A DNA stretch of 39,489 nucleotides, from assembly GCA_905479925.1 (NCBI GenBank), contig CAJQOL010000104.1:1-39489 (forward strand). Direction: 5' to 3'. The stretch's first letter is position 1. Each line of letters begins with the position of its first letter. The stretch comes from an uncultured Kangiellaceae bacterium. Lineage in GTDB: Bacteria > Pseudomonadota > Gammaproteobacteria > Enterobacterales > Kangiellaceae. Below are positions 3 through 11,832 of this stretch, one piece after another. The translations under genes were made by a program, and so were the position numbers. The notes beneath the pieces are model-generated. The model was not told the origin of the DNA. It saw nothing but the letters and a program-made list of their open reading frames with translations, and ran no database searches.

Positions 3-1808
3 TTGGCGGTATTAAGTACTCCTTCTCGGGAAGGCATGCCAATGATTGAAATATATGATGCATCTAATTTAAGCAAGAAACCATTCGTCATGAATGCAGA
101 CCCAATGGAAATAATCGCATTTGACTGGGTAAGTAATACAAATATTGTCTTAACTCTGCGACAGAAAACTAGAGATGAAATTGACGGATTTAATCGAGGT
201 GTTTTTGATTTTAAGTTAGCTAAGCTCGATGTTAAGAAAAGAAAAATTAAATTTTTTAAAGAGTCGAATCCGAGAATTGTTAATCTGCTCCCCGATGAGC
301 CGGAAAAAATCATTCTGGCGTTTCAGCCAGAGGCAAAGGGAAAATCAGGCGTTAGTGCAGGCAGAAGACCATGGAGTTATTATGAGTTCGATCTTAAGAA
401 AGGTCGAAAGAAGCTAATTGTGCGTGGTCAAGCCTCCATGTATGGGGTGCGATTTGATAGTAAAGGAAATCCCGTTTTTGCTCGTGGCTTTGATCGAGTT
501 ACTAGAGATTCGATTTGGTATGTAAGAGAGCCGGGAAAGAAAGAATGGGTTGAAGTTTTCAGACTCAGTGACGATAGCTTTGAAGATTTCTCTATCCAAG
601 GCTTTGATATTAAGAAAAACGGCTTGTTAGTGACGGCTCAAAATGGCTCCGATACCAGGGGGTTGTGGGAGTTTGATTACGTTACCAAAAAGTTTGGTGA
701 AGTTGTCTTTAGACACCCTGAAATCGATGTTCGAGGAGTATCATTTCATAGTAACTCATGGACAAACCCGGATACCATCGTTGGTGTCACCTATAATAGC
801 GATCGACGACACATTGAGTATTTTGACGGCAATGAAGGAGCGATTCACGCTCAATTGAGACAGATTATTCCCTACGCGCATAATTTCTCAATCAGTAGTC
901 GAGCTAAAGTCGGTCAGGACATGGTTATTTATAATTCTGGCCCTAGAGACCCTGGAACCTATTACCTTCTTAAGGCAGGCAAAATTTCTACTGTCGGAAG
1001 CAAACAGCCAACCCTGAAATCTGAAGATCTTGCTGATGTTAAATACATGACGTATAAGTCGCGAGATAACAAAAGTATCCATTCTTATGTGACTATACCT
1101 CAAGGAGAGGGGCCTTTTCCTGCGATAGTTCTACCGCATGGTGGACCTTTTGTAGCTGAAATGGTTGCATTCGATGAGTGGGCTCAGATGTTAGCTAATA
1201 ATGGCTATTTGGTTATTCAGCCAGAATACCGAGGTTCTAAGGGGTATGGTCTTGAGTATTATAAATCTGCATTTATCGAAGGTGGTGAAGGTGGTTATAA
1301 AATGCAAGATGATAAAGATGACGGTGTTAACTTCCTTGTAAAGAAAGGGTTAGCCGACCCAGAGCGAATTGCAATGTTTGGCTGGTCTTACGGAGGTTAT
1401 GCTGCGTTAGTTGCGGCTTCTAGAACTCCGCAGTTATATCAATGTGTAATTGCTGGTGCTGCGGTAACCGATAATCTTATGCAAGTGAACTATTATTCCG
1501 CTAGGATTAAAGGCGCTAGCGCGGTCGAGCAGTTGACATTTTGGCGAGATAGTATTTCACCAATTACTCAAGCTGAGAAAGTCAATGTACCGATTTTACT
1601 TATTCACGGAAGTGTTGATCAACGTGTACCTCCTGAGCATCAGAAGCGATATAGAGATGAGCTAGACAAATATAATAAGAGTTACAAATTTGTCGAACTT
1701 GATGGTGCTGACCATTTCTACAATACTCTAGATTATGGTCATCAATTAACTTTATATACATCAATGATTGATTACTTAAAAAATGACTGCGGTCCTGGCG
1801 GACTATAA
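3..1808 (+). CDS. S9 family peptidase (prolyl oligopeptidase / acylaminoacyl-peptidase-like), 5' partial
   Basis: A serine peptidase of the S9 (prolyl oligopeptidase) clan that would release amino acids or peptides from short peptides. The reading frame is open to the left edge. The TTG at base 3 is probably internal, so the true N-terminus and any signal peptide are missing. About 340 N-terminal residues look like a beta-propeller, followed by an alpha/beta-hydrolase domain with an HGGP oxyanion segment. Counting from the edge, the catalytic triad can be read as Ser462 in GWSYGGY, Asp539 in HGSVDQRVP and His571 in GADHFYN. It ends just before a strong terminator. A second S9 peptidase follows about 320 bp downstream with its own leader. 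The family is secure; substrate specificity is not visible. Confidence 0.93.
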   Translation: MAVLSTPSREGMPMIEIYDASNLSKKPFVMNADPMEIIAFDWVSNTNIVLTLRQKTRDEIDGFNRGVFDFKLAKLDVKKRKIKFFKESNPRIVNLLPDEPEKIILAFQPEAKGKSGVSAGRRPWSYYEFDLKKGRKKLIVRGQASMYGVRFDSKGNPVFARGFDRVTRDSIWYVREPGKKEWVEVFRLSDDSFEDFSIQGFDIKKNGLLVTAQNGSDTRGLWEFDYVTKKFGEVVFRHPEIDVRGVSFHSNSWTNPDTIVGVTYNSDRRHIEYFDGNEGAIHAQLRQIIPYAHNFSISSRAKVGQDMVIYNSGPRDPGTYYLLKAGKISTVGSKQPTLKSEDLADVKYMTYKSRDNKSIHSYVTIPQGEGPFPAIVLPHGGPFVAEMVAFDEWAQMLANNGYLVIQPEYRGSKGYGLEYYKSAFIEGGEGGYKMQDDKDDGVNFLVKKGLADPERIAMFGWSYGGYAALVAASRTPQLYQCVIAGAAVTDNLMQVNYYSARIKGASAVEQLTFWRDSISPITQAEKVNVPILLIHGSVDQRVPPEHQKRYRDELDKYNKSYKFVELDGADHFYNTLDYGHQLTLYTSMIDYLKNDCGPGGL

Positions 1809-2125: not shown

Positions 2126-4081
2126 TTGAATTCAAATAATTTAAAGCTAATTGCATTAAGCTTAGTGGTCAGCTTGCTAGGGGGCTGCACTGATAAACCA
2201 AGTGATAAGCAAACATTAGACAATGTTGAAACTGCTGACAGTAACTCTGCTAAATCCGAGCAAGCAGTGGCAACGAAACCTGTAATTTACTCGGCGGAAG
2301 ATTTTTTTAAGACGGTTAGTGTCTTTGGTTCTTCAATCAATCATGATAATACTGCTGCCCTTGTAACTAATGACCAGTCTGGTGTGTTTAATACATACCG
2401 TTATCCATTGGACGGAAGCAAGCCTACACAACTAACAAGCTCAACGACCGATACTATTTATGGCGTTAGTTGGTTCCCAAAGGATGACCGAATCCTCTAT
2501 ACCGCAGATCAAGGTGGTAATGAGCTCAATCATCTTTTTGTCAGAGAATTAGATGGTTCTGTGAAAGACCTTACGCCCGGTGATAAGCTAAAGGCGCAAT
2601 TTGGCGGGTGGCTTGAAGCCCATAGTGGTTTTTTCGTATTAACCAACGAACGAGACCCTAAGGGTTTTGATCTTTACCGTTATTCGATGACTGATTATTC
2701 CCGGGAACTGGTTTATCAAAATTCCGACAACTTATCGATAGGCGAAATAAGTCCCAATGGGCGTTGGCTGACGGTTAGCCAAAATGTATCCAACTCGGAT
2801 AACAATATCTTTCTGGTCGATTTAACCTCTAAGGAGCAGAAGCCAGAATTAATTACTGAACATTTAGGTAATGTTAGTCATCAAAGTTACTCGTTTACGA
2901 CGGATAGCAAAAAGCTAATCTACGCTACAAACGAACATGGTGAATTTAATCAGGCATGGAGTTTGGATTTAACATCTAAGAAGAAAGATATTTTTTATCA
3001 AGCAAACTGGGATGTCTCTTTTGTTTATTTTTCAGATGATGGCAAATATCGTGTCGCTGGAGTTAACAATGATGGACAAACGCAAGTCGACATTGCAGAG
3101 GTTGCTACCGGTCAGAGCATTTCGTTGCCTGATTTGCCTGCAGGCGATCTACGCGGTGTAAATTTTTCATCCGATAGTAAGAAAATGGTTTTCTATATCA
3201 ATTCAGATACTTCGCCGTCTAACCTATTTAGTTATGATATTGGAGCAGCTGCTGCAAAGCGTTTAACCAATAGCCTTAATCCGAATATTGATGAGAATGT
3301 TTTGGTCTCGAGTGAAGTTAAGCGTTTTAAGAGTTTTGATGACTTGGTAGTTCCAGGTATTTTATACAAGCCAAAAAATGCCTCCGCGAATCAAAAAGTG
3401 CCGGCACTAGTTTGGGTTCACGGAGGACCTGGGGGGCAGTCTAGAAAGGGGTATAGTGCAGCTATTCAACATCTTGTTAATCAAGGATATGCCATTTTTG
3501 CAGTGAATAATCGTGGTTCGTCGGGCTATGGAAAAACGTTTTTTCATTTAGATGATAAGAAACACGGTGAAGATGATTTGCAGGATATCGTTTATGGCAA
3601 AAAGCATCTGCAAACATTGTCATGGGTTGATAACGATCGAATTGGAATTATTGGCGGTAGTTATGGCGGTTATATGACCATGGCCGCATTAGCATTTACT
3701 GATGAGTTTAAAGTGGGAATTAATATATTTGGTGTGACTAATTGGCAACGTACCTTAAAAAGTATTCCGCCATGGTGGGAAGCTTTCCGCAAGTCCTTGT
3801 ATGACGAAATGGGAGATCCTGCAACCGATGCTGATCGTCATTATGCGATATCACCTTTATTTCATGCGGATAAAATTAAGAGTCCCGTGCTTATCGTTCA
3901 GGGCGCTAATGACCCGCGAGTATTACAAATTGAAAGTGATGAAATGGTCGAAGAAATTCGAAAAAATCACGTGCCTGTTGAATACGTATTATTTCCTGAT
4001 GAAGGACACGGATTTAGAAAAAAGGTTAATCGTATAACAGCTTCTAATGCTTACGTCGATTTCTTAAAAAAACACCTTTAA
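2126..4081 (+). CDS. S9 family peptidase, outer- or inner-membrane lipoprotein (dipeptidyl-peptidase-like)
   Basis: A 651-residue S9-family serine peptidase carried as a lipoprotein. The start is TTG, chosen because AAAGGAG lies 8 nt upstream and because it gives a proper lipoprotein signal: a basic N-region, a hydrophobic stretch and the lipobox LGGC with Cys21. A TolB/DPP-type propeller fills roughly residues 50-390. The hydrolase domain carries HGGPGG, Ser512 in GGSYGGYMTM, Asp596 in GANDPRV and His628 in DEGHGF, so the triad is complete. It probably acts in the periplasm on peptides. It is separated from the preceding S9 gene by a terminator, so the two are neighbours rather than an operon. 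Exact specificity (DPP, acylaminoacyl or other) is not determined. Confidence 0.93.
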   Translation: MNSNNLKLIALSLVVSLLGGCTDKPSDKQTLDNVETADSNSAKSEQAVATKPVIYSAEDFFKTVSVFGSSINHDNTAALVTNDQSGVFNTYRYPLDGSKPTQLTSSTTDTIYGVSWFPKDDRILYTADQGGNELNHLFVRELDGSVKDLTPGDKLKAQFGGWLEAHSGFFVLTNERDPKGFDLYRYSMTDYSRELVYQNSDNLSIGEISPNGRWLTVSQNVSNSDNNIFLVDLTSKEQKPELITEHLGNVSHQSYSFTTDSKKLIYATNEHGEFNQAWSLDLTSKKKDIFYQANWDVSFVYFSDDGKYRVAGVNNDGQTQVDIAEVATGQSISLPDLPAGDLRGVNFSSDSKKMVFYINSDTSPSNLFSYDIGAAAAKRLTNSLNPNIDENVLVSSEVKRFKSFDDLVVPGILYKPKNASANQKVPALVWVHGGPGGQSRKGYSAAIQHLVNQGYAIFAVNNRGSSGYGKTFFHLDDKKHGEDDLQDIVYGKKHLQTLSWVDNDRIGIIGGSYGGYMTMAALAFTDEFKVGINIFGVTNWQRTLKSIPPWWEAFRKSLYDEMGDPATDADRHYAISPLFHADKIKSPVLIVQGANDPRVLQIESDEMVEEIRKNHVPVEYVLFPDEGHGFRKKVNRITASNAYVDFLKKHL

Positions 4082-4097
4082 TATTTATGCCGTTTTT

Positions 4098-4138
4098 GCT
4101 CGATAGTTTCTTGTCCTTTTAACAAGTTTCTATCGAGC
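4098..4138. repeat. Inverted repeat between the peptidase and the secDF operon
   Basis: A perfect 9-bp stem GCTCGATAG (4098-4106) pairs with CTATCGAGC (4130-4138). A smaller inner CTTG/CAAG pairing is possible. No T-run follows on the plus strand, so it is at best a weak terminator. It ends 3 nt before the -35 of the next promoter, so it could also be an operator. Confidence 0.5.
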
Positions 4139-4141
4139 GAC

Positions 4142-4171
4142 TTGTAATTTTACCTTTCGCCCCCATACAAT
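4142..4171 (+). promoter_or_regulatory. Candidate sigma70 promoter for the secretion monitor-secDF operon
   Basis: TTGTAA at 4142-4147 and TACAAT at 4166-4171 are separated by 18 bp, a good match to sigma70 consensus. Transcription would begin near 4178. That is before both candidate starts of the following gene (TTG 4197 and ATG 4248). No comparably good promoter was found between that gene and secD, which fits cotranscription. Confidence 0.5.
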
Positions 4172-4247
4172 AAACTGACTAATCAAAAAGACGCTATTGA
4201 GAAGGCTAGGTTCGGTTTACAGGGTGTTTTACTTACAGTTCAAAGAA

Positions 4248-4799
4248 ATGGCACTGAGGCTTCTCGTAATCTTTACGATGCTCGGTTACGTTTGTACTGC
4301 AAATGCGGCTGTTTTATGGTCTAGTCATAATGCATCGAACAGCGTTAGTTTAAACTCTAATTTTTCTAGTTATTCTAAATTTTCTAATTCTTTGTTAGCC
4401 AAAGAATCATTGACTGAATCGAAAGTTATCTCAATCGCTGCTCTAGTAGATCTAGCGGTAGATGTCATTGAGGATGGGGACTACGTTTCAACTTCCGCTT
4501 CAACTTCTGCTGCAACTACCGATAAAACGCTTGAACTAATTGAAGTCTTTGACGATAATTACTCACTATTTCTCTCTAGAGTTAACGCGTCTGCTTTCCA
4601 GGCTTATCAGCAACAAACACCTATTTATTGGCTTGTTTTCGAGTTCAATCCACCGGATTCATCTCTGCTAACTATTTCAGATGACCGCTTTCCAAATCAT
4701 TCATTTACTTTTGTTTATTCCGCCTATGGCAGTAACCATCGTCTTTCAGGCTGGAAAGATGGTAACTCACTTTACACTTCCAGAATCATCTATAGCTAA
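4248..4799 (+). CDS. VemP-like secretion-monitor (ribosome-arrest) polypeptide upstream of secDF
   Basis: A small exported protein of 183 residues from ATG 4248; an in-frame TTG at 4197 would add 17. From the ATG there is a typical signal peptide: short basic N-region, hydrophobic core LLVIFTMLGYVC and an ANA-A cleavage site. The middle is Ser/Thr-rich and low in complexity. The last 20 residues are HRLSGWKDGNSLYTSRIIYS. As I recall it, the Vibrio VemP arrest segment (His138 onward) begins HRISGWKETNAMY, so identity or conservative exchange runs through HRxSGWKxxNxxY, including the key Trp. As with vemP, the gene lies immediately upstream of an extra secDF pair. VemP stalls its own ribosome when export is poor, exposing the secDF2 ribosome-binding site. 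If the alignment holds, stalling would occur with the Tyr codon 4791-4793 in the P site, one codon before the last. Homology is inferred by eye; function is untested. Confidence 0.78.
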   Translation: MALRLLVIFTMLGYVCTANAAVLWSSHNASNSVSLNSNFSSYSKFSNSLLAKESLTESKVISIAALVDLAVDVIEDGDYVSTSASTSAATTDKTLELIEVFDDNYSLFLSRVNASAFQAYQQQTPIYWLVFEFNPPDSSLLTISDDRFPNHSFTFVYSAYGSNHRLSGWKDGNSLYTSRIIYS

Positions 4800-4990
4800 T
4801 TTTATCTCGCATCGATAACTAGAGAGCGTCAAATAGGGCCCGGCCTGTTGGTTTTCTCTAGATTACTCGAGCAAATTTTATTCCTATTTTATCGCGCTGA
4901 ATTAGCTTCAGCGTGGAAACTATTTGTTGGGTGTCTCGCAACAACTTATTTAAAACATAGCAGCGAGCCGCTCTTAGCTGAGATCTAATG
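4794..4990 (+). promoter_or_regulatory. Possible arrest-controlled RNA switch masking the secD ribosome-binding region
   Basis: The 188-nt gap before secD holds several helices. Stem A is CTAGAGA (4819-4825) with TCTCTAG (4855-4861). Stem B is CGCTGAA (4895-4901) with TTCAGCG (4907-4913). A nested long-range pairing is also possible: AGCTAA at the stop of the upstream gene (4794-4799) with TTAGCT (4974-4979), and CTCGC (4806-4810) with GCGAG (4963-4967). TTAGCT overlaps the weak Shine-Dalgarno region of secD. A ribosome stalled at the end of the upstream ORF would cover 4794-4806 and prevent this pairing. The complementarity is visible; the switch role is inferred from vemP-secDF2. Confidence 0.4.
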
Positions 4991-7156
4991 ATGAAAAAAA
5001 TTACGAATAATATAAAAAATGCAAACCCAGATAGACAGTCAGACTTAAGAAGTTCAATAAGAACGAAACAACAGCCGAAAGTCCCTATTAATCGTTTTGC
5101 AGCATGGAAATATGTAGTTATCTTTCTTTCGCTCGTATTTCTGGGAATAAGCGCATTGCCAAACTTATATCAAAATCAAATGACGCTGGTTGTGTCAGAG
5201 TATCAGGAAGGGGCTCCTAAGCTAGATGTTAGTTTTCTTAAGGATAAGTTAACGGAGGGTGGTTTTGATATTGAGGCTATTCAGCAACATCATTTTGAAA
5301 GCGTCATTAGCTTAACTTCCGCGAGCCAATTGACGGCCGCTCAGCATTACCTTAATAAGCTCCTTAATTCCGCGACTGAGCAATCGATAGTTATGTACCG
5401 AGTCGAAGTTGTTGAAAAAGATACCAGACCTAGTTGGTTGCGTTCGTTAGGAGTTGAACCTATTAAACTTGGGCTTGATCTAAGTGGCGGGGTGCTCTTT
5501 GTCCTAGATGTTGACGAAAAGAAAGCATTCGAGGAGAGGATGCAGAATATTCGTCTGTACGCAAAGTCTTTATTGCGTGAACAGCAGGTTCGAAATGTAA
5601 AAATAGTGCTGACTAAAGAAAATCAGGTCTTACTTGATTCTTCTGCAACCAAGCAAGATTGGTTTAGTTTAGCGACAGTAGCCGAAAAACTACAAGCGCA
5701 ATATCCTCAACTTACTATTCGACATCTTAAAGAGAATCAGTTGCAACTTGAATATTCTGACGTCGGGAAAAATAACTTCCTTCAGCAGATCATGCATCAA
5801 ACGTTAACTACAATGCGAGGAAGAATTGAAGAGCTTGGAATAACTGAAGCCGTCGTTCAACGTCAAGGTGCTCACAGAGTTAGGATTGAATTACCTGGCG
5901 CTAGCAATCCCGAAAAACTCCGTCCGGTCATTGGTGCTACGGCTTCCTTAGATTTTTATGAGCTACAAAGCAGAGACGGTAAAATTGTTAAGAATGAAAA
6001 TGGCGAAAGGTTATCGGTTAATCCCAGAGCTATTTTCTCTGGTAAGAATATTTATAACGCTCAAGCAGGCAGGGATGAAATGGGGCAACCGTTAGTCAAT
6101 TTAACATTAGATAATATTGGCGGCGATAGGATGCTCAAATTTTCTGCAAAAAATATCGGCAAGCCCATGGTCACTGTTTTTTCTGAATACTATCAATCAA
6201 AAGATGGCAGTACACATAAGAAAAGCAAAGTAATCAATGTGGCAACGATACAGGACCAGTTGGGTGCCCGTTTTAGTATTACTAACCTTGCTAGCAGCTT
6301 ACAAGCACAGGAGTTAGCTTTGTTGCTGCGGGCTGGGTCATTAAGCGCACCCGTCACAATCGCCAAACAGCGCGCCATTGCTGCGACCTTAGGTGAGTCT
6401 AATATAAACCACGGGCTGTCGGCTCTAATGTTGGGTGTTGGTTTAACTTTAGTCTTTATGGCCGCGTGGTATAGACGGTTAGGAATGATCGCTAACTGCG
6501 CATTAATTCTAAATTTAGTAGCACTGCTAGGTTTGATGTCGCTCTTACCGGGGGCTGTCCTTACGCTACCAGGGATCGCAGGATTTGTGTTAACAGTGGG
6601 TATGGCGGTTGATACTAATGTTCTTATTTTTGAGCGAATAAAACAGGAAAAAAAGCGAGGGTTAAGTCATTTTTTAGCCGTCGAACAAGGGTATAAAAAT
6701 GCGTTTTCAACAATATTCGATGCCAATATAACAACTTTAATCACCGCCGCTATTCTCTTTTCTATCGGTTATGGTCCTATTAAAGGTTTTGCAATTACCT
6801 TGGGCCTCGGTGTACTGACCAGTATGTTTACCGGTGTATTTATTTCAAGGGCGTTAACCAATCTTTTTTATAGCGAGACAACGGTATCTACCGAGAAAAA
6901 TTCCCGAAAAATTATGGCAGGTGATAACGCGCTAGAAGGTTCTGAAGATAAAAATGGAGACAACAAACAGCATTCATCTAAAGCTAAGTTAGATAAAACT
7001 AATCGTCAAGATGAAAATAATCGTCAAAACAGGAATAGTCGTCAAAATAAAAATAATCGTCAAATTAGAAATAATCGTCAAATTAGAAATAACCGGCAAA
7101 GCTCAAAAGGAGTCAAAAAGCCAAAGCCACTAGTAAAAGGAGGAAAGTCATTATGA
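4988..7156 (+). CDS. secD: Protein translocase subunit SecD (second-copy, SecD2-type)
   Basis: An RND-family subunit that, with SecF, uses the ion gradient to pull exported proteins through SecYEG on the periplasmic side. There is an N-terminal cytoplasmic segment, TM1 near residues 37-56 and a large periplasmic domain with LGLDLSGG near residue 161. About five C-terminal TM helices follow (roughly 476-628) with Asp542 in VGMAVDTN, the conserved transport-site motif. At 722 residues it is about 100 longer than E. coli SecD. The excess is a hydrophilic tail (about 635-722) with six-residue NRQxxN repeats. Its Shine-Dalgarno is poor (GAG only), unlike secF, which suits translational control by the gene upstream. 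It is not next to yajC/tgt, so it is probably a paralogue. ATG 4988 and 4991 are equivalent choices. Confidence 0.95.
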   Translation: MMKKITNNIKNANPDRQSDLRSSIRTKQQPKVPINRFAAWKYVVIFLSLVFLGISALPNLYQNQMTLVVSEYQEGAPKLDVSFLKDKLTEGGFDIEAIQQHHFESVISLTSASQLTAAQHYLNKLLNSATEQSIVMYRVEVVEKDTRPSWLRSLGVEPIKLGLDLSGGVLFVLDVDEKKAFEERMQNIRLYAKSLLREQQVRNVKIVLTKENQVLLDSSATKQDWFSLATVAEKLQAQYPQLTIRHLKENQLQLEYSDVGKNNFLQQIMHQTLTTMRGRIEELGITEAVVQRQGAHRVRIELPGASNPEKLRPVIGATASLDFYELQSRDGKIVKNENGERLSVNPRAIFSGKNIYNAQAGRDEMGQPLVNLTLDNIGGDRMLKFSAKNIGKPMVTVFSEYYQSKDGSTHKKSKVINVATIQDQLGARFSITNLASSLQAQELALLLRAGSLSAPVTIAKQRAIAATLGESNINHGLSALMLGVGLTLVFMAAWYRRLGMIANCALILNLVALLGLMSLLPGAVLTLPGIAGFVLTVGMAVDTNVLIFERIKQEKKRGLSHFLAVEQGYKNAFSTIFDANITTLITAAILFSIGYGPIKGFAITLGLGVLTSMFTGVFISRALTNLFYSETTVSTEKNSRKIMAGDNALEGSEDKNGDNKQHSSKAKLDKTNRQDENNRQNRNSRQNKNNRQIRNNRQIRNNRQSSKGVKKPKPLVKGGKSL
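7001..7108 (+). repeat. 18-nt tandem repeat encoding the SecD C-terminal tail
   Basis: Six consecutive 18-nt units begin at 7001, 7019, 7037, 7055, 7073 and 7091, with consensus AATCGTCAAattagaaat. They encode residues 672-707 as NRQDEN, NRQNRN, SRQNKN, NRQIRN, NRQIRN, NRQSSK. The fourth and fifth units are identical, which points to recent duplication or slippage. The repeats are in frame and add a basic, Asn/Gln-rich cytoplasmic tail. Confidence 0.95.
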
Positions 7157-8202
7157 ATAACATCACTCAAGATCATTGTCGTTCAAATAGGCGTGAGCAA
7201 AGCCAAACCAACAAACAGCTTGTTTCGACTAGCTGGTCAAGATATCGCTTTTTAGGTTTCTATTTTTCAGCATTTCTCGTGGTCTTCTCATTATTGGGAG
7301 TATGGGTTAAAGGCATAAATTTCGGCATTGATTTTACCGGCGGATATATAACGGAGTTTTCGACGAGTCAGTCATTAGATGAGAACAGTCTGCGTAAATT
7401 ATTGGACGAAAAGATAACTGGACCTTATCTCTTGGCAGCTTCGGACAATGATACTTATTGGACGGTGCGCGAGCCAGCCGGCAAAAAAGAGAACACTCAA
7501 AAACATAATAGTAGGAATTCAATTGCTCCTGTAAGCCAAAACGACTCGACAAACTTCAGCGAATCCTGGCTAGTAGGATTAATGGAAGATACCGGTTTGC
7601 TCGAACAAGGTATTCAGATTACACCCTTTGACTCGGATTATATTGGTACTCAAATTGGAGAAGAATTAGTTAATCAAGGTGGTCTAGCTATGCTTACCGC
7701 GTTAATCATCATCATGCTGTACCTTTCAACTCGGTTCGAGTGGCGGTTTGCACTAGGATCGATTATTGCTCTATTTCATGATGTCGTTTTTGTGTTTGGC
7801 CTGTTTGCATGGAGCCAGCTAGAATTTAACTTAACTGTTTTGGCGAGCTTGCTGGCTGTTATCGGTTACTCGTTAAATGATTCTATCATTGTCGCTGACC
7901 GAATTAGAGAGTTAATGATGTATCGTCAACGAAACTCTCTATCCGTTATTATTGATAGGGCAATTGAATCGACGCTGGTGCGAACATCGATAACCTCAGG
8001 CACAACACTCGCAACGGTTGGTGCGGTCTGGTGGCTTGCTGGCTCGCCTTTACAGGGTTTTTCGGTCGCTTTATTCGGCGGCATATTAATCGGGACTTTT
8101 TCGTCAATCTGTATTTCATCGACTTTTCCTGAACTGGCGGGGTTAGATGTCGACCACTATTTCCAAAGGTCGGTTGATGCTGAATCCGATCTTGATTTTT
8201 AA
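7153..8202 (+). CDS. secF: Protein translocase subunit SecF (second-copy, SecF2-type)
   Basis: The partner of SecD in the SecDF complex. The start overlaps the secD stop by 4 nt (ATGA) and has a strong AAGGAGG at 7137-7143, so the two are translationally coupled. The 349 residues contain TM1, the family motif GINFGIDFTGG and a periplasmic domain. Five C-terminal TM helices follow with GYSLNDSIIVADRIRE, the conserved TM motif. Two oddities: a polar N-terminal extension of about 30 residues, and a low-complexity Asn/Ser/Lys-rich insertion in the periplasmic part around residues 113-137. Identity as SecF is certain; whether it uses protons or sodium cannot be told from the sequence. Confidence 0.95.
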   Translation: MNNITQDHCRSNRREQSQTNKQLVSTSWSRYRFLGFYFSAFLVVFSLLGVWVKGINFGIDFTGGYITEFSTSQSLDENSLRKLLDEKITGPYLLAASDNDTYWTVREPAGKKENTQKHNSRNSIAPVSQNDSTNFSESWLVGLMEDTGLLEQGIQITPFDSDYIGTQIGEELVNQGGLAMLTALIIIMLYLSTRFEWRFALGSIIALFHDVVFVFGLFAWSQLEFNLTVLASLLAVIGYSLNDSIIVADRIRELMMYRQRNSLSVIIDRAIESTLVRTSITSGTTLATVGAVWWLAGSPLQGFSVALFGGILIGTFSSICISSTFPELAGLDVDHYFQRSVDAESDLDF

Positions 8203-8475: not shown

Positions 8476-11400
8476 ATGAGATTGGTAAAAACCTGTCTGT
8501 ATGCCGCGTTAACCGGCGTATTGATGAATACGACTGCGATTGCTGCGGCGGATTCAGCTAAAGCTAAAAAGGCCGATTCTGCGGCAGTAGCAAACGAAAA
8601 AACTAAAAAAGATGAGCCTAAATGGGATGTTAATAACCCTCCAGGTGATGAAAAATCTGTGAAAATTGAAACTACTGAGTCTACGTGGAGTAACGTTGAT
8701 GTCAGTCCTGACGGAAAAACGGTTATTTTTGATATGTTAGGTGATGTCTATGCTATGTCAATCAATGGAGGAGACGCTAAGCCCCTAACCAAAGGAATGG
8801 CTTGGAATATGATGCCGCGTTTTAGTCCTGATGGTAAAAGCATCGCTTTTATCAGTGACAGAGACGGCGGAGATAACCTTTGGGTTATGGATGTTAATGG
8901 CGAAAACTCGAGACAAATCAGTAAAGAGAAAACGAATTTAGTTCACACGCCTAACTGGTCTCCGGACGGTCAATATATCGCAGCTAGGAAAGGTTTTGTT
9001 GGAGCTCGGAGTATTGCCGGTGGCGAGATTTGGATGTTTCATAAAAGCGGCGGCAGCGGTTATCAGTTAAGAAAACGGATTGGTGGCGCACAAGCTCAGA
9101 AAAATATTTCAGAGCCAGCCTTTTCGCCAAATGGACAATATGTCTATTACTCTATTGACTCTACTCCCGGAACGGTATGGCAATATAACAAAAACCCTAC
9201 CGGTCAAATCTTTACCATTACCCGACTTGACAGAGAAACGGGAAAGCAACGCACAATTGTTAGCGGTGCTGGTGGCGCTATTGCACCTACGCCATCGAGT
9301 GATGGAAAATATTTAGCCTTCGTGAGGCGAGTGGATACTAAAACAACCTTGTTTGTTAAGGATTTAAAAACCGGTGTTGATAAAGCGATCTATAGTGGCC
9401 TAGACAGAGACCTTCAGGAAACTAATGGTAGTCATGGTAATACACCGCAATTTGACTGGACACCTGATAATCGTTCTATCGTTATTTGGGCGGGCGGTAA
9501 AATCAAGCGAGTAGCTGTAGCGACCGGTAAAGCCGAAGATATCCCATTTAAAGTGTCTGTTGAGAAAAAAGTGACACCAGCGGTTCGTTTTGCTGTTGAT
9601 GTAGCACCTGAAAAATTCGATGTAAGAATGATTCGCTGGGCACAACTTTCACCTAAAGGTGACAAAATCGCTTATCAAGCATTAGGAAAAATATATGTTC
9701 GTGATGTTAAGTCTGGCAAGCGAAAGCGTTTAACTTCTCAAAAAGACCATTTCGAGTATTACCCAACGTTTTCTCGTGATGGTAAGAAAATAGCCTACGT
9801 CAGTTGGGATGACCAAAAGTTAGGTAGTGTGAAGGTTGTTTCTAGTCGAGGGGGCAGAAGCCGCACGATTAGCAGCGAGCCGGGGCATTATATCGAACCA
9901 GCATTTTCTAACGACGGTGACAAAGTTGTATTTAGACGTTTTACCGGCGGTTATTTAACCTCACCAGAATACTCAATGGAACCTGGTCTTTATATCGCTA
10001 ATACAAACGGTAAAGGCGATGCTAAAAAAATTCATGATTCAGGTGTAAACCCGCATTTCTCTGCGGATGGTAAACGCATATTCTTCTCAGCTTTCGGTTG
10101 GGGAACTAAAACAACGTTTTCAAGTGTCGGAATTGACGGTAAAGATGTTCGTGAACATCTAAACGGCATGGATATTACTGAGTTCCAAGTCTCTCCTGAT
10201 GGAAAGTGGGTCGCATTTAGCCAGCAGTTTAATGCTTTTGTTGCGCCGTTCACGCTAACTGGAAAGTCAGAAACAATTACCAAAAGCAGCAAATCTATGC
10301 CGGTCAAGCAAGTATCTAAGCGTAGTGGCGAGTTTCTTCATTGGTCGGCCGATAGCAAGCAGTTAAATTGGGCGCTTGGCTCTAAACTTTACCAAAGAAA
10401 ACTAAAAGATGCGTTTAGCTTTTTTGCAGGCAGTCCCGATGAACTACCTGATCCAGTAACCGAAGGGATTGAACTTAGCTTTAAGAAAACTTCATTTGTG
10501 CCTAAAGGAAGTATCGCTTTGGTCGGCGCTGATATCGTCACTATGAAAAATGTTGATCAGGGACAAGAAGTCATCAAGAGCGGTGTCATTATTGTTGATG
10601 GAAATCGTATTACTGCCGTAGGAACTCAAGATCAAGTAACAGTACCTAAAGGCGCTAAGGTGATCGACGTTAGTGGTAAAACGATTGCACCAGGATTGGT
10701 TGATGTTCATGCCCATGGTGGTCAAGCCAGCAATGAAATTGTACCTCAACAAAACTGGATGAGTTACTCATCGTTAGCTTTTGGTGTTACAACCATTCAT
10801 GACCCGTCAAATGACTCAACTGAGATTTTTGCTTCAAGTGAAATGCAAAGGGCCGGTGTGACAGTTTCTCCTCGAATATTCTCTACGGGAACTATTTTGT
10901 ATGGTGCAAAAGCACCCGGTTATACCGCTAAAATTGATAGCTATGACGATGCAAAATTTCACCTTCAACGTCTTAAGGATTTGGGCGCCATTTCGGTGAA
11001 AAGTTATAACCAGCCAAGACGAGATCAGAAACAACAAGTGATCGCTGCCGGTAAAGAATTAGGTATTATGGTTGTACCGGAAGGTGGAGCTAAGTTTTAC
11101 CATAATATGACAATGGTGGTTGATGGTCATACTGGTGTTGAACATGCGCTACCAATACCTCACGTTTACGACGATGTAAAACAACTATGGTCGCAAACTG
11201 ACGTTGGTTATTCTCCAACATTTGGTGTGGCTTATGGTGGTCTTTCAGGTGAAACCTATTGGTATGATAGAAGCAACGTTTGGGAAAATAAGAAACTGAT
11301 GACTTATACACCTAAGTATATGGTGGAGCCAAACGCAATTAGAAGAACCACTGCGCCGGACTCTCACTATAACCACTTTAACGTTGCCAAAACCGCCAAA

Positions 11401-11832
11401 GAACTTAACGATAAAGGTGTGCCGGTTGTTATCGGAGCCCATGGCCAACGAGAAGGTTTAGCGGCTCACTGGGAGTTATGGATGATGAATCAAGGTGGAT
11501 TTACACCTTGGCAGGCGCTAAAAGGCGGCACAATTGATGGTGCTAAGTATCTAGGTATGGAGAAAGATATCGGTTCAATTGAAGTTGGGAAACTAGCTGA
11601 CTTAATGGTAATTGAAGGTGACGTCTTGACCGATCTAAGACAGTCTGAAAATGTCGTTTATACGATGATTAACGGACGTCTTTTTGATACCGCTACCATG
11701 AATGAAATTGGACGAAAATCTGGCCATAAACGTGAACCATTCTTTTTCGAAAGGTTGTCAGGCCAGTCTCTTCCAGAAGCTACCGCCAATGAGCTAAAGT
11801 TGAAACAAGAGCAATACCACTGGCGTCACTAG
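8476..11832 (+). CDS. Exported TolB-propeller / amidohydrolase fusion protein
   Basis: A very large (1118-residue) exported protein. The signal peptide (MRLVKTCLYAALTGVLM..., cleavage near AIA-A, about residue 24) directs it to the periplasm. Residues about 60-640 hold repeated PD40/TolB-type propeller blades, each with an SPDGK/SPNGQ motif (for example SPDGKTVIF, SPDGKSIAF, SPDGQYIAA). Residues about 665-1100 form an amidohydrolase-superfamily domain: metal-binding HAH (His745, His747) in VDVHAHGG, later histidines in GVEHALPIPH and GAHGQ, and the closing GSIEVGKLADLMVIEGD. Such fusions occur in marine gammaproteobacteria and are usually predicted peptidases or cyclic amidases; the substrate is unknown. 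GGAG lies upstream of the ATG, and a strong terminator follows, so it is monocistronic. Confidence 0.9.
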   Translation: MRLVKTCLYAALTGVLMNTTAIAAADSAKAKKADSAAVANEKTKKDEPKWDVNNPPGDEKSVKIETTESTWSNVDVSPDGKTVIFDMLGDVYAMSINGGDAKPLTKGMAWNMMPRFSPDGKSIAFISDRDGGDNLWVMDVNGENSRQISKEKTNLVHTPNWSPDGQYIAARKGFVGARSIAGGEIWMFHKSGGSGYQLRKRIGGAQAQKNISEPAFSPNGQYVYYSIDSTPGTVWQYNKNPTGQIFTITRLDRETGKQRTIVSGAGGAIAPTPSSDGKYLAFVRRVDTKTTLFVKDLKTGVDKAIYSGLDRDLQETNGSHGNTPQFDWTPDNRSIVIWAGGKIKRVAVATGKAEDIPFKVSVEKKVTPAVRFAVDVAPEKFDVRMIRWAQLSPKGDKIAYQALGKIYVRDVKSGKRKRLTSQKDHFEYYPTFSRDGKKIAYVSWDDQKLGSVKVVSSRGGRSRTISSEPGHYIEPAFSNDGDKVVFRRFTGGYLTSPEYSMEPGLYIANTNGKGDAKKIHDSGVNPHFSADGKRIFFSAFGWGTKTTFSSVGIDGKDVREHLNGMDITEFQVSPDGKWVAFSQQFNAFVAPFTLTGKSETITKSSKSMPVKQVSKRSGEFLHWSADSKQLNWALGSKLYQRKLKDAFSFFAGSPDELPDPVTEGIELSFKKTSFVPKGSIALVGADIVTMKNVDQGQEVIKSGVIIVDGNRITAVGTQDQVTVPKGAKVIDVSGKTIAPGLVDVHAHGGQASNEIVPQQNWMSYSSLAFGVTTIHDPSNDSTEIFASSEMQRAGVTVSPRIFSTGTILYGAKAPGYTAKIDSYDDAKFHLQRLKDLGAISVKSYNQPRRDQKQQVIAAGKELGIMVVPEGGAKFYHNMTMVVDGHTGVEHALPIPHVYDDVKQLWSQTDVGYSPTFGVAYGGLSGETYWYDRSNVWENKKLMTYTPKYMVEPNAIRRTTAPDSHYNHFNVAKTAKELNDKGVPVVIGAHGQREGLAAHWELWMMNQGGFTPWQALKGGTIDGAKYLGMEKDIGSIEVGKLADLMVIEGDVLTDLRQSENVVYTMINGRLFDTATMNEIGRKSGHKREPFFFERLSGQSLPEATANELKLKQEQYHWRH

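What the first reader, a model, noticed from the sequence alone, without database searches (positions are those of the whole stretch)
4197..4799. VemP-like ribosome-arrest secretion monitor upstream of secDF
The gene has the complete layout of Vibrio vemP: promoter, small protein with signal peptide, then a structured gap and an extra secD-secF pair. Its C-terminal 20 residues (HRLSGWKDGNSLYTSRIIYS) match, from memory, the VemP arrest segment beginning HRISGWKETNAMY at the residues reported as important (His, Arg, Ser-Gly-Trp-Lys, Asn, Tyr). VemP arrests with Gln156 in the P site; the equivalent here is the penultimate residue Tyr, so the peptide ends two residues earlier than VemP and stalls, if at all, one codon before its end. 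The rest of the protein looks unrelated and Ser/Thr-rich. A member in a non-Vibrio, Kangiella-like genome would extend the family and show which arrest residues are essential.
Basis: partly seen in the sequence, partly recalled or inferred. Interest (0 to 1): 0.93.

Follow-up and report, generated by a model that had tools for sequence, protein, structure and literature searches.

The report
VemP-type export sensor beyond Vibrio
A marine bacterium outside the Vibrio group carries, just before a second secD-secF gene pair, a gene for a small protein predicted to be exported that ends in the VemP ribosome-stalling motif; it likely stalls its own translation when export slows, which would switch on the extra export motor, and relatives of this motif also sit just before other cell-envelope genes.

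Summary
The ORF at 4197-4799 ends in HRLSGWKDGNSLYTSRIIYS. VemP is the only match among 177,635 distinct PDB sequences for the whole protein (E 0.33) or its tail (E 0.024), and the best match (E 1.6e-4) for a profile of its family without Vibrio rows. In relatives the tail is conserved and the body is not (64% vs 27% identity, tail above body in 15 of 15 pairs). In 55 of 60 named loci with such a tail, secD follows directly. The window's SecD groups with SecDs found behind VemP-like ORFs, Vibrio's included, apart from 15 of 15 housekeeping SecDs. An Arg sits exactly at the spacing of VemP's export-tuning Arg-85. In the predicted mRNA fold the last codons pair with the secD ribosome-binding site, and a ribosome at the predicted arrest codon opens it; that pairing alone is no better than shuffles. 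Stalling itself is untested. This is a VemP-family secretion monitor in a Kangiellaceae-type genome. Relatives gave the larger surprise: the same kind of tail sits upstream of yqjA (13 of 13 hits), an S41 protease, and chaA-like/dedA genes.

The parts
4142..4171 (+). promoter-like site TTGTAA-18-TACAAT upstream of the vemP-like ORF (weak evidence)
   Evidence: 9 of 12 consensus positions; 3 such sites in the region vs 2.3 expected in shuffles
4197..4799 (+). vemP-like ORF, 200 aa from TTG 4197; the likelier start is GTG 4224 (191 aa)
   Evidence: homologue P0003 begins at the equivalent of 4224
4224..4307 (+). predicted signal peptide MFYLQFKEMALRLLVIFTMLGYVCTANA (judged by eye; no predictor was available)
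   Evidence: sequence; hydrophobic N-termini in the rows of A1 and A2 (by eye)
4566..4580 (+). short hydrophobic run and Arg119 (codon 4578-4580), like VemP's short hydrophobic segment and Arg-85: 54 residues before the motif Arg in both
   Evidence: an Arg 51-59 residues before the motif Arg in 59 of 61 sequences; VemP Arg-85 and Arg-139 from PMC7793623 and PMC5449182
4737..4796 (+). arrest tail HRLSGWKDGNSLYTSRIIYS, aligned to VemP from residue 138
   Evidence: VemP nascent chain, PDB 5nwy; conservation
4791..4793 (+). predicted P-site codon (Tyr, equivalent of VemP Gln156)
   Evidence: ungapped extension of the alignment to VemP; Tyr here in 42 of 61 sequences; stalling not tested
4788..4799 (+). 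5' arm: last codons of the ORF, predicted to pair with the secD ribosome-binding site
   Evidence: pair probabilities 0.5-0.8; not stronger than shuffled codons
4974..4984 (+). 3' arm: UUAGCUGAGAU, holding the secD Shine-Dalgarno-like sequence
   Evidence: mean unpaired probability of 4978-4984 is 0.08-0.20 with the ribosome upstream, 0.51 with its front edge at 4808
4800..4987 (+). 188-nt structured gap between the vemP-like ORF and secD
   Evidence: fold of 4740-5020, z -2.40
4988..7156 (+). secD, second (SecD2-type) copy, 722 aa
7153..8202 (+). secF, second copy, 349 aa

Best explanation
The ORF at 4224(or 4197)-4799 lies directly upstream of a second secD-secF pair, ends in the VemP arrest motif, and likely works as a VemP-family secretion monitor that stalls its own ribosome when protein export is slow and would thereby turn on SecD2-SecF2. 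Steps: (1) the nascent chain is predicted to be targeted to SecYEG by its N-terminal signal (inferred). (2) The tail R139-x-x-G142-W143-K144-x-x-N147-x-x-Y150 (VemP numbering) would grip the exit tunnel and arrest elongation with Tyr (codon 4791-4793) in the P site (inferred from homology). (3) While arrested, the ribosome covers the last codons, which in the free mRNA are predicted to pair with the secD Shine-Dalgarno region; secD would then be translated. (4) When SecDF pulling is adequate, the force would release the arrest, the ribosome would terminate, the mRNA would refold and secDF2 would go quiet. The Arg 54 residues before the motif would, like VemP Arg-85, set how much force is needed. 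Shown here: sequence, synteny, tail-over-body conservation, grouping of SecD2, spacing of the Arg. Predicted only: arrest, its release and the mRNA switch.
For: Profile of 6 rows without Vibrio hits the VemP nascent chain at E 1.6e-4, next hit 0.69; single sequences hit VemP alone. Tail over body: 64% vs 27% in A1, 54% vs 21% in A2, in 15 of 15 and 45 of 45 pairs. Tyr150, not fixed by the scan pattern, is present in 61 of 61. secD on the same strand directly downstream in 55 of 60 named loci and beside 72 of 84 matches (71 of 82 genomes) in the order scan (compared). SecDs behind VemP-like ORFs (19 rows) plus 3 others lie on one side of a 100/100 branch and 15 of 15 housekeeping SecDs on the other; the five from the window's family form a 98/97 group. 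In 9 genomes chosen for the check, the 6 with the gene have two SecDs over the cut-off and the 3 without it have one. An Arg lies 51-59 residues before the motif Arg in 59 of 61 sequences, at exactly 54 in the window. Among front edges that a ribosome on this ORF can reach, predicted opening of the secD Shine-Dalgarno is highest at 4808 (0.51; 0.08-0.20 for edges 4700-4784), which puts the P site at the predicted codon. Over 51 sequences the stretch under the arrested ribosome closes the start region more than shuffles of it (one-sided Wilcoxon p 0.0027; not independent).
Against: No stalling data. Only 8 of the 19 residues of VemP's 138-156 stretch are identical, while 17 of those 19 affect stalling in VemP (PMC5449182, passage); Leu153 and Asn154 are Arg and Ile, and the P-site Gln156 is Tyr (PMC7897499, passage, lists 156 as unimportant, so sources differ on that residue). 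The direct pairing of the last codons with the secD start is not stronger than with shuffled codons in the window (44% of shuffles as good) or across 51 sequences (median 45%; 3 of 51 under 5%). In one search the window itself does not beat its shuffles (19 of 40 as closed). Equal or higher openings recur for artificial masks (0.48-0.52 at 4862-4892, 0.61 at 4910). The pairing of SecD2 and VemP is not strict: 27 of 97 genomes with a PRK12933-type SecD over the cut-off have no VemP-like match at E 0.001. No named RNA family matches. Start codon and promoter are uncertain.
Confidence: 0.86

Rival explanations
1. The ORF is a real VemP homologue, but arrest depends on another residue or site (for example stalling at the stop codon, as in uA_NSP-stop and uDF_DGMK-stop of PMC10987492), because the PTC-near residues differ and the ORF ends 7 residues after Tyr150.
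For: Leu153, Asn154 and Gln156 are not kept; the distance from Tyr150 to the stop is 8 residues in 49 of 61 and 7 in 4 of 61 including the window; stop-codon stallers upstream of secDF exist (PMC10987492, passages read).
Against: Length after Tyr150 still varies (5, 7, 8, 9, 11); Vibrio VemP stalls with Gln156 in the P site (PMC5449182, passages).
Confidence: 0.25
2. The ORF is a relic: the tail is kept by descent, but secDF2 is expressed constitutively or only through translational coupling.
For: The mRNA pairing in the window is no better than shuffles; the promoter is not above chance; 27 of 97 genomes have SecD2 without a VemP-like match.
Against: The body has diverged to about 27% identity while the tail stays at 64% in the same family, which needs ongoing selection on the tail.
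Confidence: 0.08
3. An ordinary small secreted protein whose C-terminus is a binding motif for SecD or another partner, with no role for the ribosome.
For: A conserved C-terminal motif can also be a protein-binding tail; no arrest data here.
Against: The motif is that of a chain solved inside the ribosome tunnel (PDB 5nwy; PMC5449182, passages), and relatives keep the tail in front of genes that are not secD.
Confidence: 0.04

Closest known systems
VemP of Vibrio alginolyticus (vemP-secD2-secF2; PDB 5nwy; PMC5449182, PMC7793623, PMC11470409, passages read)
   Same: Small predicted secretory protein, tail RxSGWKxxNxxY, second secD-secF directly downstream, SecD on the same side of the tree as Vibrio SecDs behind VemP-like ORFs, short hydrophobic run plus Arg 54 residues before the motif Arg.
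   Different: 8 of 19 residues identical in the 138-156 stretch; residues 153, 154 and 156 are Arg, Ile and Tyr instead of Leu, Asn and Gln; body looks unrelated; Arg follows the hydrophobic run after one residue rather than two (by eye); host is Kangiellaceae-type, not Vibrio.
The 339 VemP-like sequences of Sakiyama et al. 2024 (PMC10987492; motif RxxxWKxxNxxY)
   Same: The window tail fits their motif and position upstream of secDF; it may belong to the same cluster.
   Different: The VemP passages of the main text that I saw (12 of 13 places) name only Vibrio hosts; the supplementary lists were not readable here, so whether Kangiellaceae are among the 339 is unknown.
SecM, MifM and the RAPP-type monitors (ApdA, ApdP, uDF_RQH_Enterobacterales of Alteromonas; PMC10987492 and PMC7897499, passages)
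   Same: Same design: exported uORF product, C-terminal arrest tail, downstream localization gene freed from an mRNA structure.
   Different: Different arrest sequences; no RAPP-like motif in this tail.

Membership tests
VemP | C-terminal motif RxxxWKxxNxxY (definition used in PMC10987492) | tested here: met
   R173, W177, K178, N181 and Y184 (numbered from 4224) are invariant in 10 of 10 rows of A2
VemP | Sequence similarity to VemP beyond chance | tested here: met
   Profile A1 (6 rows, none from Vibrio; P0003 of unnamed origin) hits 5nwy_s at E 1.6e-4, the next hit is at 0.69; single-sequence E-values are weak (0.33, 0.024)
VemP | Directly upstream of a second secD-secF pair of the SecD2 type | tested here: met
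VemP | N-terminal secretion signal | tested here: inconclusive
   Typical n-, h- and c-regions by eye; no signal predictor available
VemP | Export-tuning Arg-85 with a short hydrophobic segment before it | tested here: met
   Arg at the same 54-residue spacing; by eye the hydrophobic run is one residue nearer to it than in VemP
VemP | Residues Leu153, Asn154 and P-site Gln156 of V. alginolyticus VemP | tested here: not met
   Arg, Ile and Tyr in the window; these columns vary across the family too and are outside the published family motif, so I do not treat them as defining
VemP | mRNA structure that hides the secD start and opens when the ribosome is arrested | tested here: inconclusive
   Predicted opening from 0.08-0.20 to 0.51; direct pairing not above shuffles
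VemP | Force-sensitive ribosome arrest | not testable with these tools
   needs in vitro translation and toeprinting

The most novel reading that the evidence does not exclude
The VemP arrest tail is a portable translocation-force sensor used across the order well outside Vibrio and plugged in front of different envelope genes: secD2-secF2 (the window and most relatives), the DedA-family gene yqjA followed by mzrA in Enterobacteriaceae-like genomes, a secreted S41 protease, and a chaA-like antiporter and/or a dedA gene in Vibrionaceae. One ribosome-based export sensor thus drives several separate envelope responses.
Probability: 0.7. Interest if true: 0.87.

Novelty: new member of a known kind. 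Interest (0 to 1): 0.74.

Why it matters
The vemP-secD2/F2 operon has been called specific to Vibrio (PMC11470409, passage read). The window and its relatives show the module across marine gammaproteobacteria and separate the residues the family keeps (Arg139, Gly142, Trp143, Lys144, Asn147, Tyr150, and an Arg near -54) from those that it lets vary. That makes the arrest code directly testable: a natural tail without Leu153, Asn154 and Gln156. The relatives upstream of yqjA-mzrA, an S41 protease and chaA-like/dedA genes suggest that cells may read Sec pulling force to control more than the Sec motor, including a member of the DedA family, which holds candidate undecaprenyl-phosphate translocases (PMC9876793, passages read), and the EnvZ/OmpR modulator MzrA.

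Tried and rejected
Direct complementarity between the last codons and the secD start as proof of the mRNA switch: rejected as proof, since it is no better than shuffled codons. Escherichia coli yqiM, the 27-codon ORF before yqjA, as a relic of the yqjA-type uORF: rejected, no GWK motif in the three forward frames of the gap. Pfam and NCBIfam for the ORF and Rfam for 4080-5060: no match. The large protein search (E 0.01) found only the window's own protein (P0002) and one close relative (P0003), probably because only the tail is shared. A class-level sample gave 3 of 369 hits: the window itself, one genome of the same order, and one match (E 4e-4) that ends before the tail. Literature: papers holding both VemP and Kangiella 0, both DedA and arrest peptide 0; VemP with ChaA 23, of which the 5 listed are unrelated; none of the 12 listed of 124 holds DedA, none of the 20 listed of 27 holds yqjA or mzrA together with arrest peptide, none of the 15 listed of 2,527 holds VemP. 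A structure prediction was not run.

Full report
OBSERVATION. The window holds an ORF from TTG 4197 to TAA 4799 (200 aa) that ends in HRLSGWKDGNSLYTSRIIYS, followed by a 188-nt gap, secD (4988-7156) and secF (7153-8202). The start is not settled: the one close homologue, P0003 (56% identity), begins at the equivalent of GTG 4224. The N-terminus (FKEMALRLLVIFTMLGYVCTANA-A) reads as a signal peptide by eye. The motif as a DNA pattern (CGN arginine codons only) occurs once in the 4.49-Mb genome, at this place, and not in the reversed-pattern control.

IS IT VemP. A search of the PDB sequences with the whole protein or with its last 33 codons gives one hit each up to E 10, the VemP nascent chain (E 0.33 and 0.024). 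A profile of six sequences (window, four genomes of its family and the unnamed P0003; no Vibrio row) gives VemP at E 1.6e-4 with the next hit at 0.69. Among relatives the tail is conserved and the rest is not: mean pairwise identity 64% against 27% in six sequences (15 of 15 pairs) and 54% against 21% in ten (45 of 45 pairs).

SYNTENY AND ORTHOLOGY. Of 61 genomes of relatives, 12 had a match to the whole protein at E 0.1; 9 of them (L001-L009, the window included) hold a VemP-like ORF with a secD-like frame downstream, and the other 3 have only weak hits (E 0.009-0.07) to other frames. A scan of named genomes for R[LMI][SA]GWK[DE][GSA]N gave 212 stretches, of which 60 were confirmed as loci, from Pleionea, Aliikangiella, a Kangiellaceae MAG, Colwellia, Psychromonas, Paraglaciecola, Pseudoalteromonas, Thalassotalea, Shewanella, Photobacterium, Vibrio and others; 55 of 60 have secD on the same strand directly downstream, and the other 5 are described below. 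In the order, 82 of 394 genomes (18 of 114 genera) match a ten-row profile; 72 of the 84 matches, in 71 of 82 genomes, lie beside a PRK12933-type SecD hit. The converse is weaker: 27 of 97 genomes with such a SecD over the cut-off have no VemP-like match at this threshold. In the class sample 3 of 369 genomes match, none of them with a tail outside the order. A tree of 37 SecDs puts all 15 housekeeping copies on one side of a 100/100 branch and all 19 SecDs behind VemP-like ORFs, plus 3 others, on the other; the five from the window's family group together (98/97). Of nine genomes picked for the check, six with the VemP-like gene have two SecDs over the TIGR01129 cut-off and three without it have one.

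WHICH RESIDUES. Across 61 sequences (60 of them selected by the pattern, so columns 139-147 are partly fixed by selection) the unselected Tyr150 is invariant; position 155 is Thr in 43, 156 is Tyr in 42, 157 is His in 34 and 158 is Ser in 43. In V. alginolyticus VemP 17 of the 19 residues 138-156 affect stalling, Gln156 sits in the P site, and L153A reduces stalling (PMC5449182, passages); another paper writes the motif as HRIXGWKETNAMYVXLNXX, with 156 unimportant (PMC7897499, passage). The window keeps 8 of those 19 and has Arg153, Ile154 and Tyr156. VemP Arg-85 sets how arrest release couples to SecDF and PpiD (PMC7793623, passages). In 59 of 61 sequences an Arg lies 51-59 residues before the motif Arg (the one nearest to 54 was taken; 2 have none between 31 and 74), and in the window at exactly 54, the spacing of Arg-85 to Arg-139. 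The short hydrophobic run before it is present by eye, one residue nearer than in VemP (SLFL-S-R; in VemP TLALFN-TQ-R, from PMC11470409, passages).

THE mRNA SWITCH. The stretch 4740-5020 folds better than shuffles (z -2.40; 2 of 200 as good). In the ensemble the last codons (4788-4799) pair with the secD Shine-Dalgarno stretch (4974-4984) at probabilities of 0.5-0.8. The unpaired probability of 4978-4984 is 0.08-0.20 for ribosome front edges from 4700 to 4784, 0.32-0.41 at 4790-4802, 0.51 at 4808 (P site at 4792, next to the predicted codon 4791), 0.49 at 4814, and 0.09-0.30 at 4820-4856; it returns to 0.48-0.52 at 4862-4892 and is 0.61 at 4910, edges that no ribosome translating this ORF would reach. 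Against this, pairing energy alone is no better than for shuffled codons, in the window (44%) or over 51 sequences (median 45%; 3 of 51 under 5%), and in the accessibility test the window does not beat its own shuffles (19 of 40) although the 51 as a set do (p 0.0027, not independent). Ten of the 61 sequences were left out of these two tests: 5 without secD, 5 where the script found no SecD start landmark. The switch is therefore predicted, not shown.

RELATIVES WITH OTHER TARGETS. The twelve matches without a listed SecD beside them, and the 5 exceptions, were read. (a) Four Enterobacteriaceae-like genomes carry the ORF before a yqjA-like gene (VTT/DedA domain, PF09335) and an mzrA gene (NCBIfam MzrA, 155.4 bits, cut-off 89), both tested in L112 only; further genes resemble yqjC-D-E of E. 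coli K-12 by eye. A profile of these four found 13 of 149 genomes of that family (9 of them new); all 13 have the tail R-x-x-GWK-x-SN-x-x-Y and a yqjA match beginning 83-331 nt after the stop, and 12 of 13 an mzrA match; tail identity is 77% against 22% for the body (78 of 78 pairs). E. coli K-12 has no such tail before yqjA. (b) Of 55 loci given to (some of them the same place fetched twice), 47 showed the tail by the pattern used and 8 did not and were not pursued; of the 47, 40 had SecD next, 6 (six genomes) an S41 peptidase next and 1 ended at a contig end; PF03572 was confirmed in two of these six and in L117, a further S41 case with a degenerate tail. (c) Photobacterium frigidiphilum (L074) and G319 (L121) have a chaA-like gene (PF01699 above cut-off; NCBIfam ChaA at 322-324 bits, below its 505-bit cut-off) then dedA; P. 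lutimaris, P. rosenbergii and P. sanctipauli have a small membrane ORF of no known family then dedA; Vibrio sp. D404a (L077) has a chaA-like gene that looks broken. G351 (L111) has a degenerate tail; G319's other copy (L120) ends at a contig end. Host groups of unnamed G genomes are inferred.

KNOWN OR NEW. VemP, its structure and its logic are known. The vemP-secD2/F2 operon is called specific to Vibrio in PMC11470409 (passage). PMC10987492 (section 6 and passages) reports 339 VemP-like sequences from 339 genomes with the motif RxxxWKxxNxxY; the VemP passages seen name Vibrio hosts only, and its supplement could not be read, so Kangiellaceae members may already be listed there. The window is thus a new member of a known kind. 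No listed paper in the searches links VemP or an arrest peptide to DedA/yqjA, within the limits of that library and of the capped lists.

Noticed in passing
L123-L135 (G309, G383, G275, G334 and 9 further genomes of one family): VemP-type tail GWKxSNxxY in a small ORF whose stop lies 83-331 nt before the yqjA (DedA family) match, 13 of 13 hits; mzrA follows in 12 of 13.
   Followed up: yes
L143-L146, L165, L166 (G395, G380, G904, G896, G179, G141): VemP-type tail directly upstream of an S41-family peptidase gene instead of secD.
   Followed up: partly
L074, L121, L023, L049, L066, L077: VemP-type tail upstream of a chaA-like gene and/or dedA in Photobacterium and Vibrio-type genomes; in L077 the chaA-like gene looks broken.
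   Followed up: partly
L111 (G351:C3, about 476048-476473): Degenerate VemP-like tail (LSGRKEANLLY) followed by a small protein resembling by eye the one after the broken chaA-like gene of L077.
   Followed up: no
G047, G193, G267, G359, G124 and 22 other genomes: PRK12933-type SecD over the cut-off but no VemP-like match at E 0.001; a different or more diverged upstream regulator may be there.
   Followed up: no
window 6993-7100: Six copies of an 18-bp repeat encode a basic Asn/Arg/Gln-rich C-terminal extension of this SecD (722 aa; the other VemP-linked SecDs as extracted have 590-646).
   Followed up: no
L112:2890-3282: MzrA matches the SecD N-terminal TM family (PF13721, 73.5 bits) and weakly SecD PRK12933 (22.7 bits), so the small gene after yqjA resembles the SecD segment that follows vemP elsewhere.
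   Followed up: no
G343:C2:473575-474041: The VemP-like match is split over two overlapping frames, as if frameshifted.
   Followed up: no
window 3-1808, 2126-4081 and 8476-11832: The vemP-secDF operon sits between genes for prolyl-oligopeptidase-like peptidases and a TolB-amidohydrolase-like protein (judged by eye from the translations).
   Followed up: no
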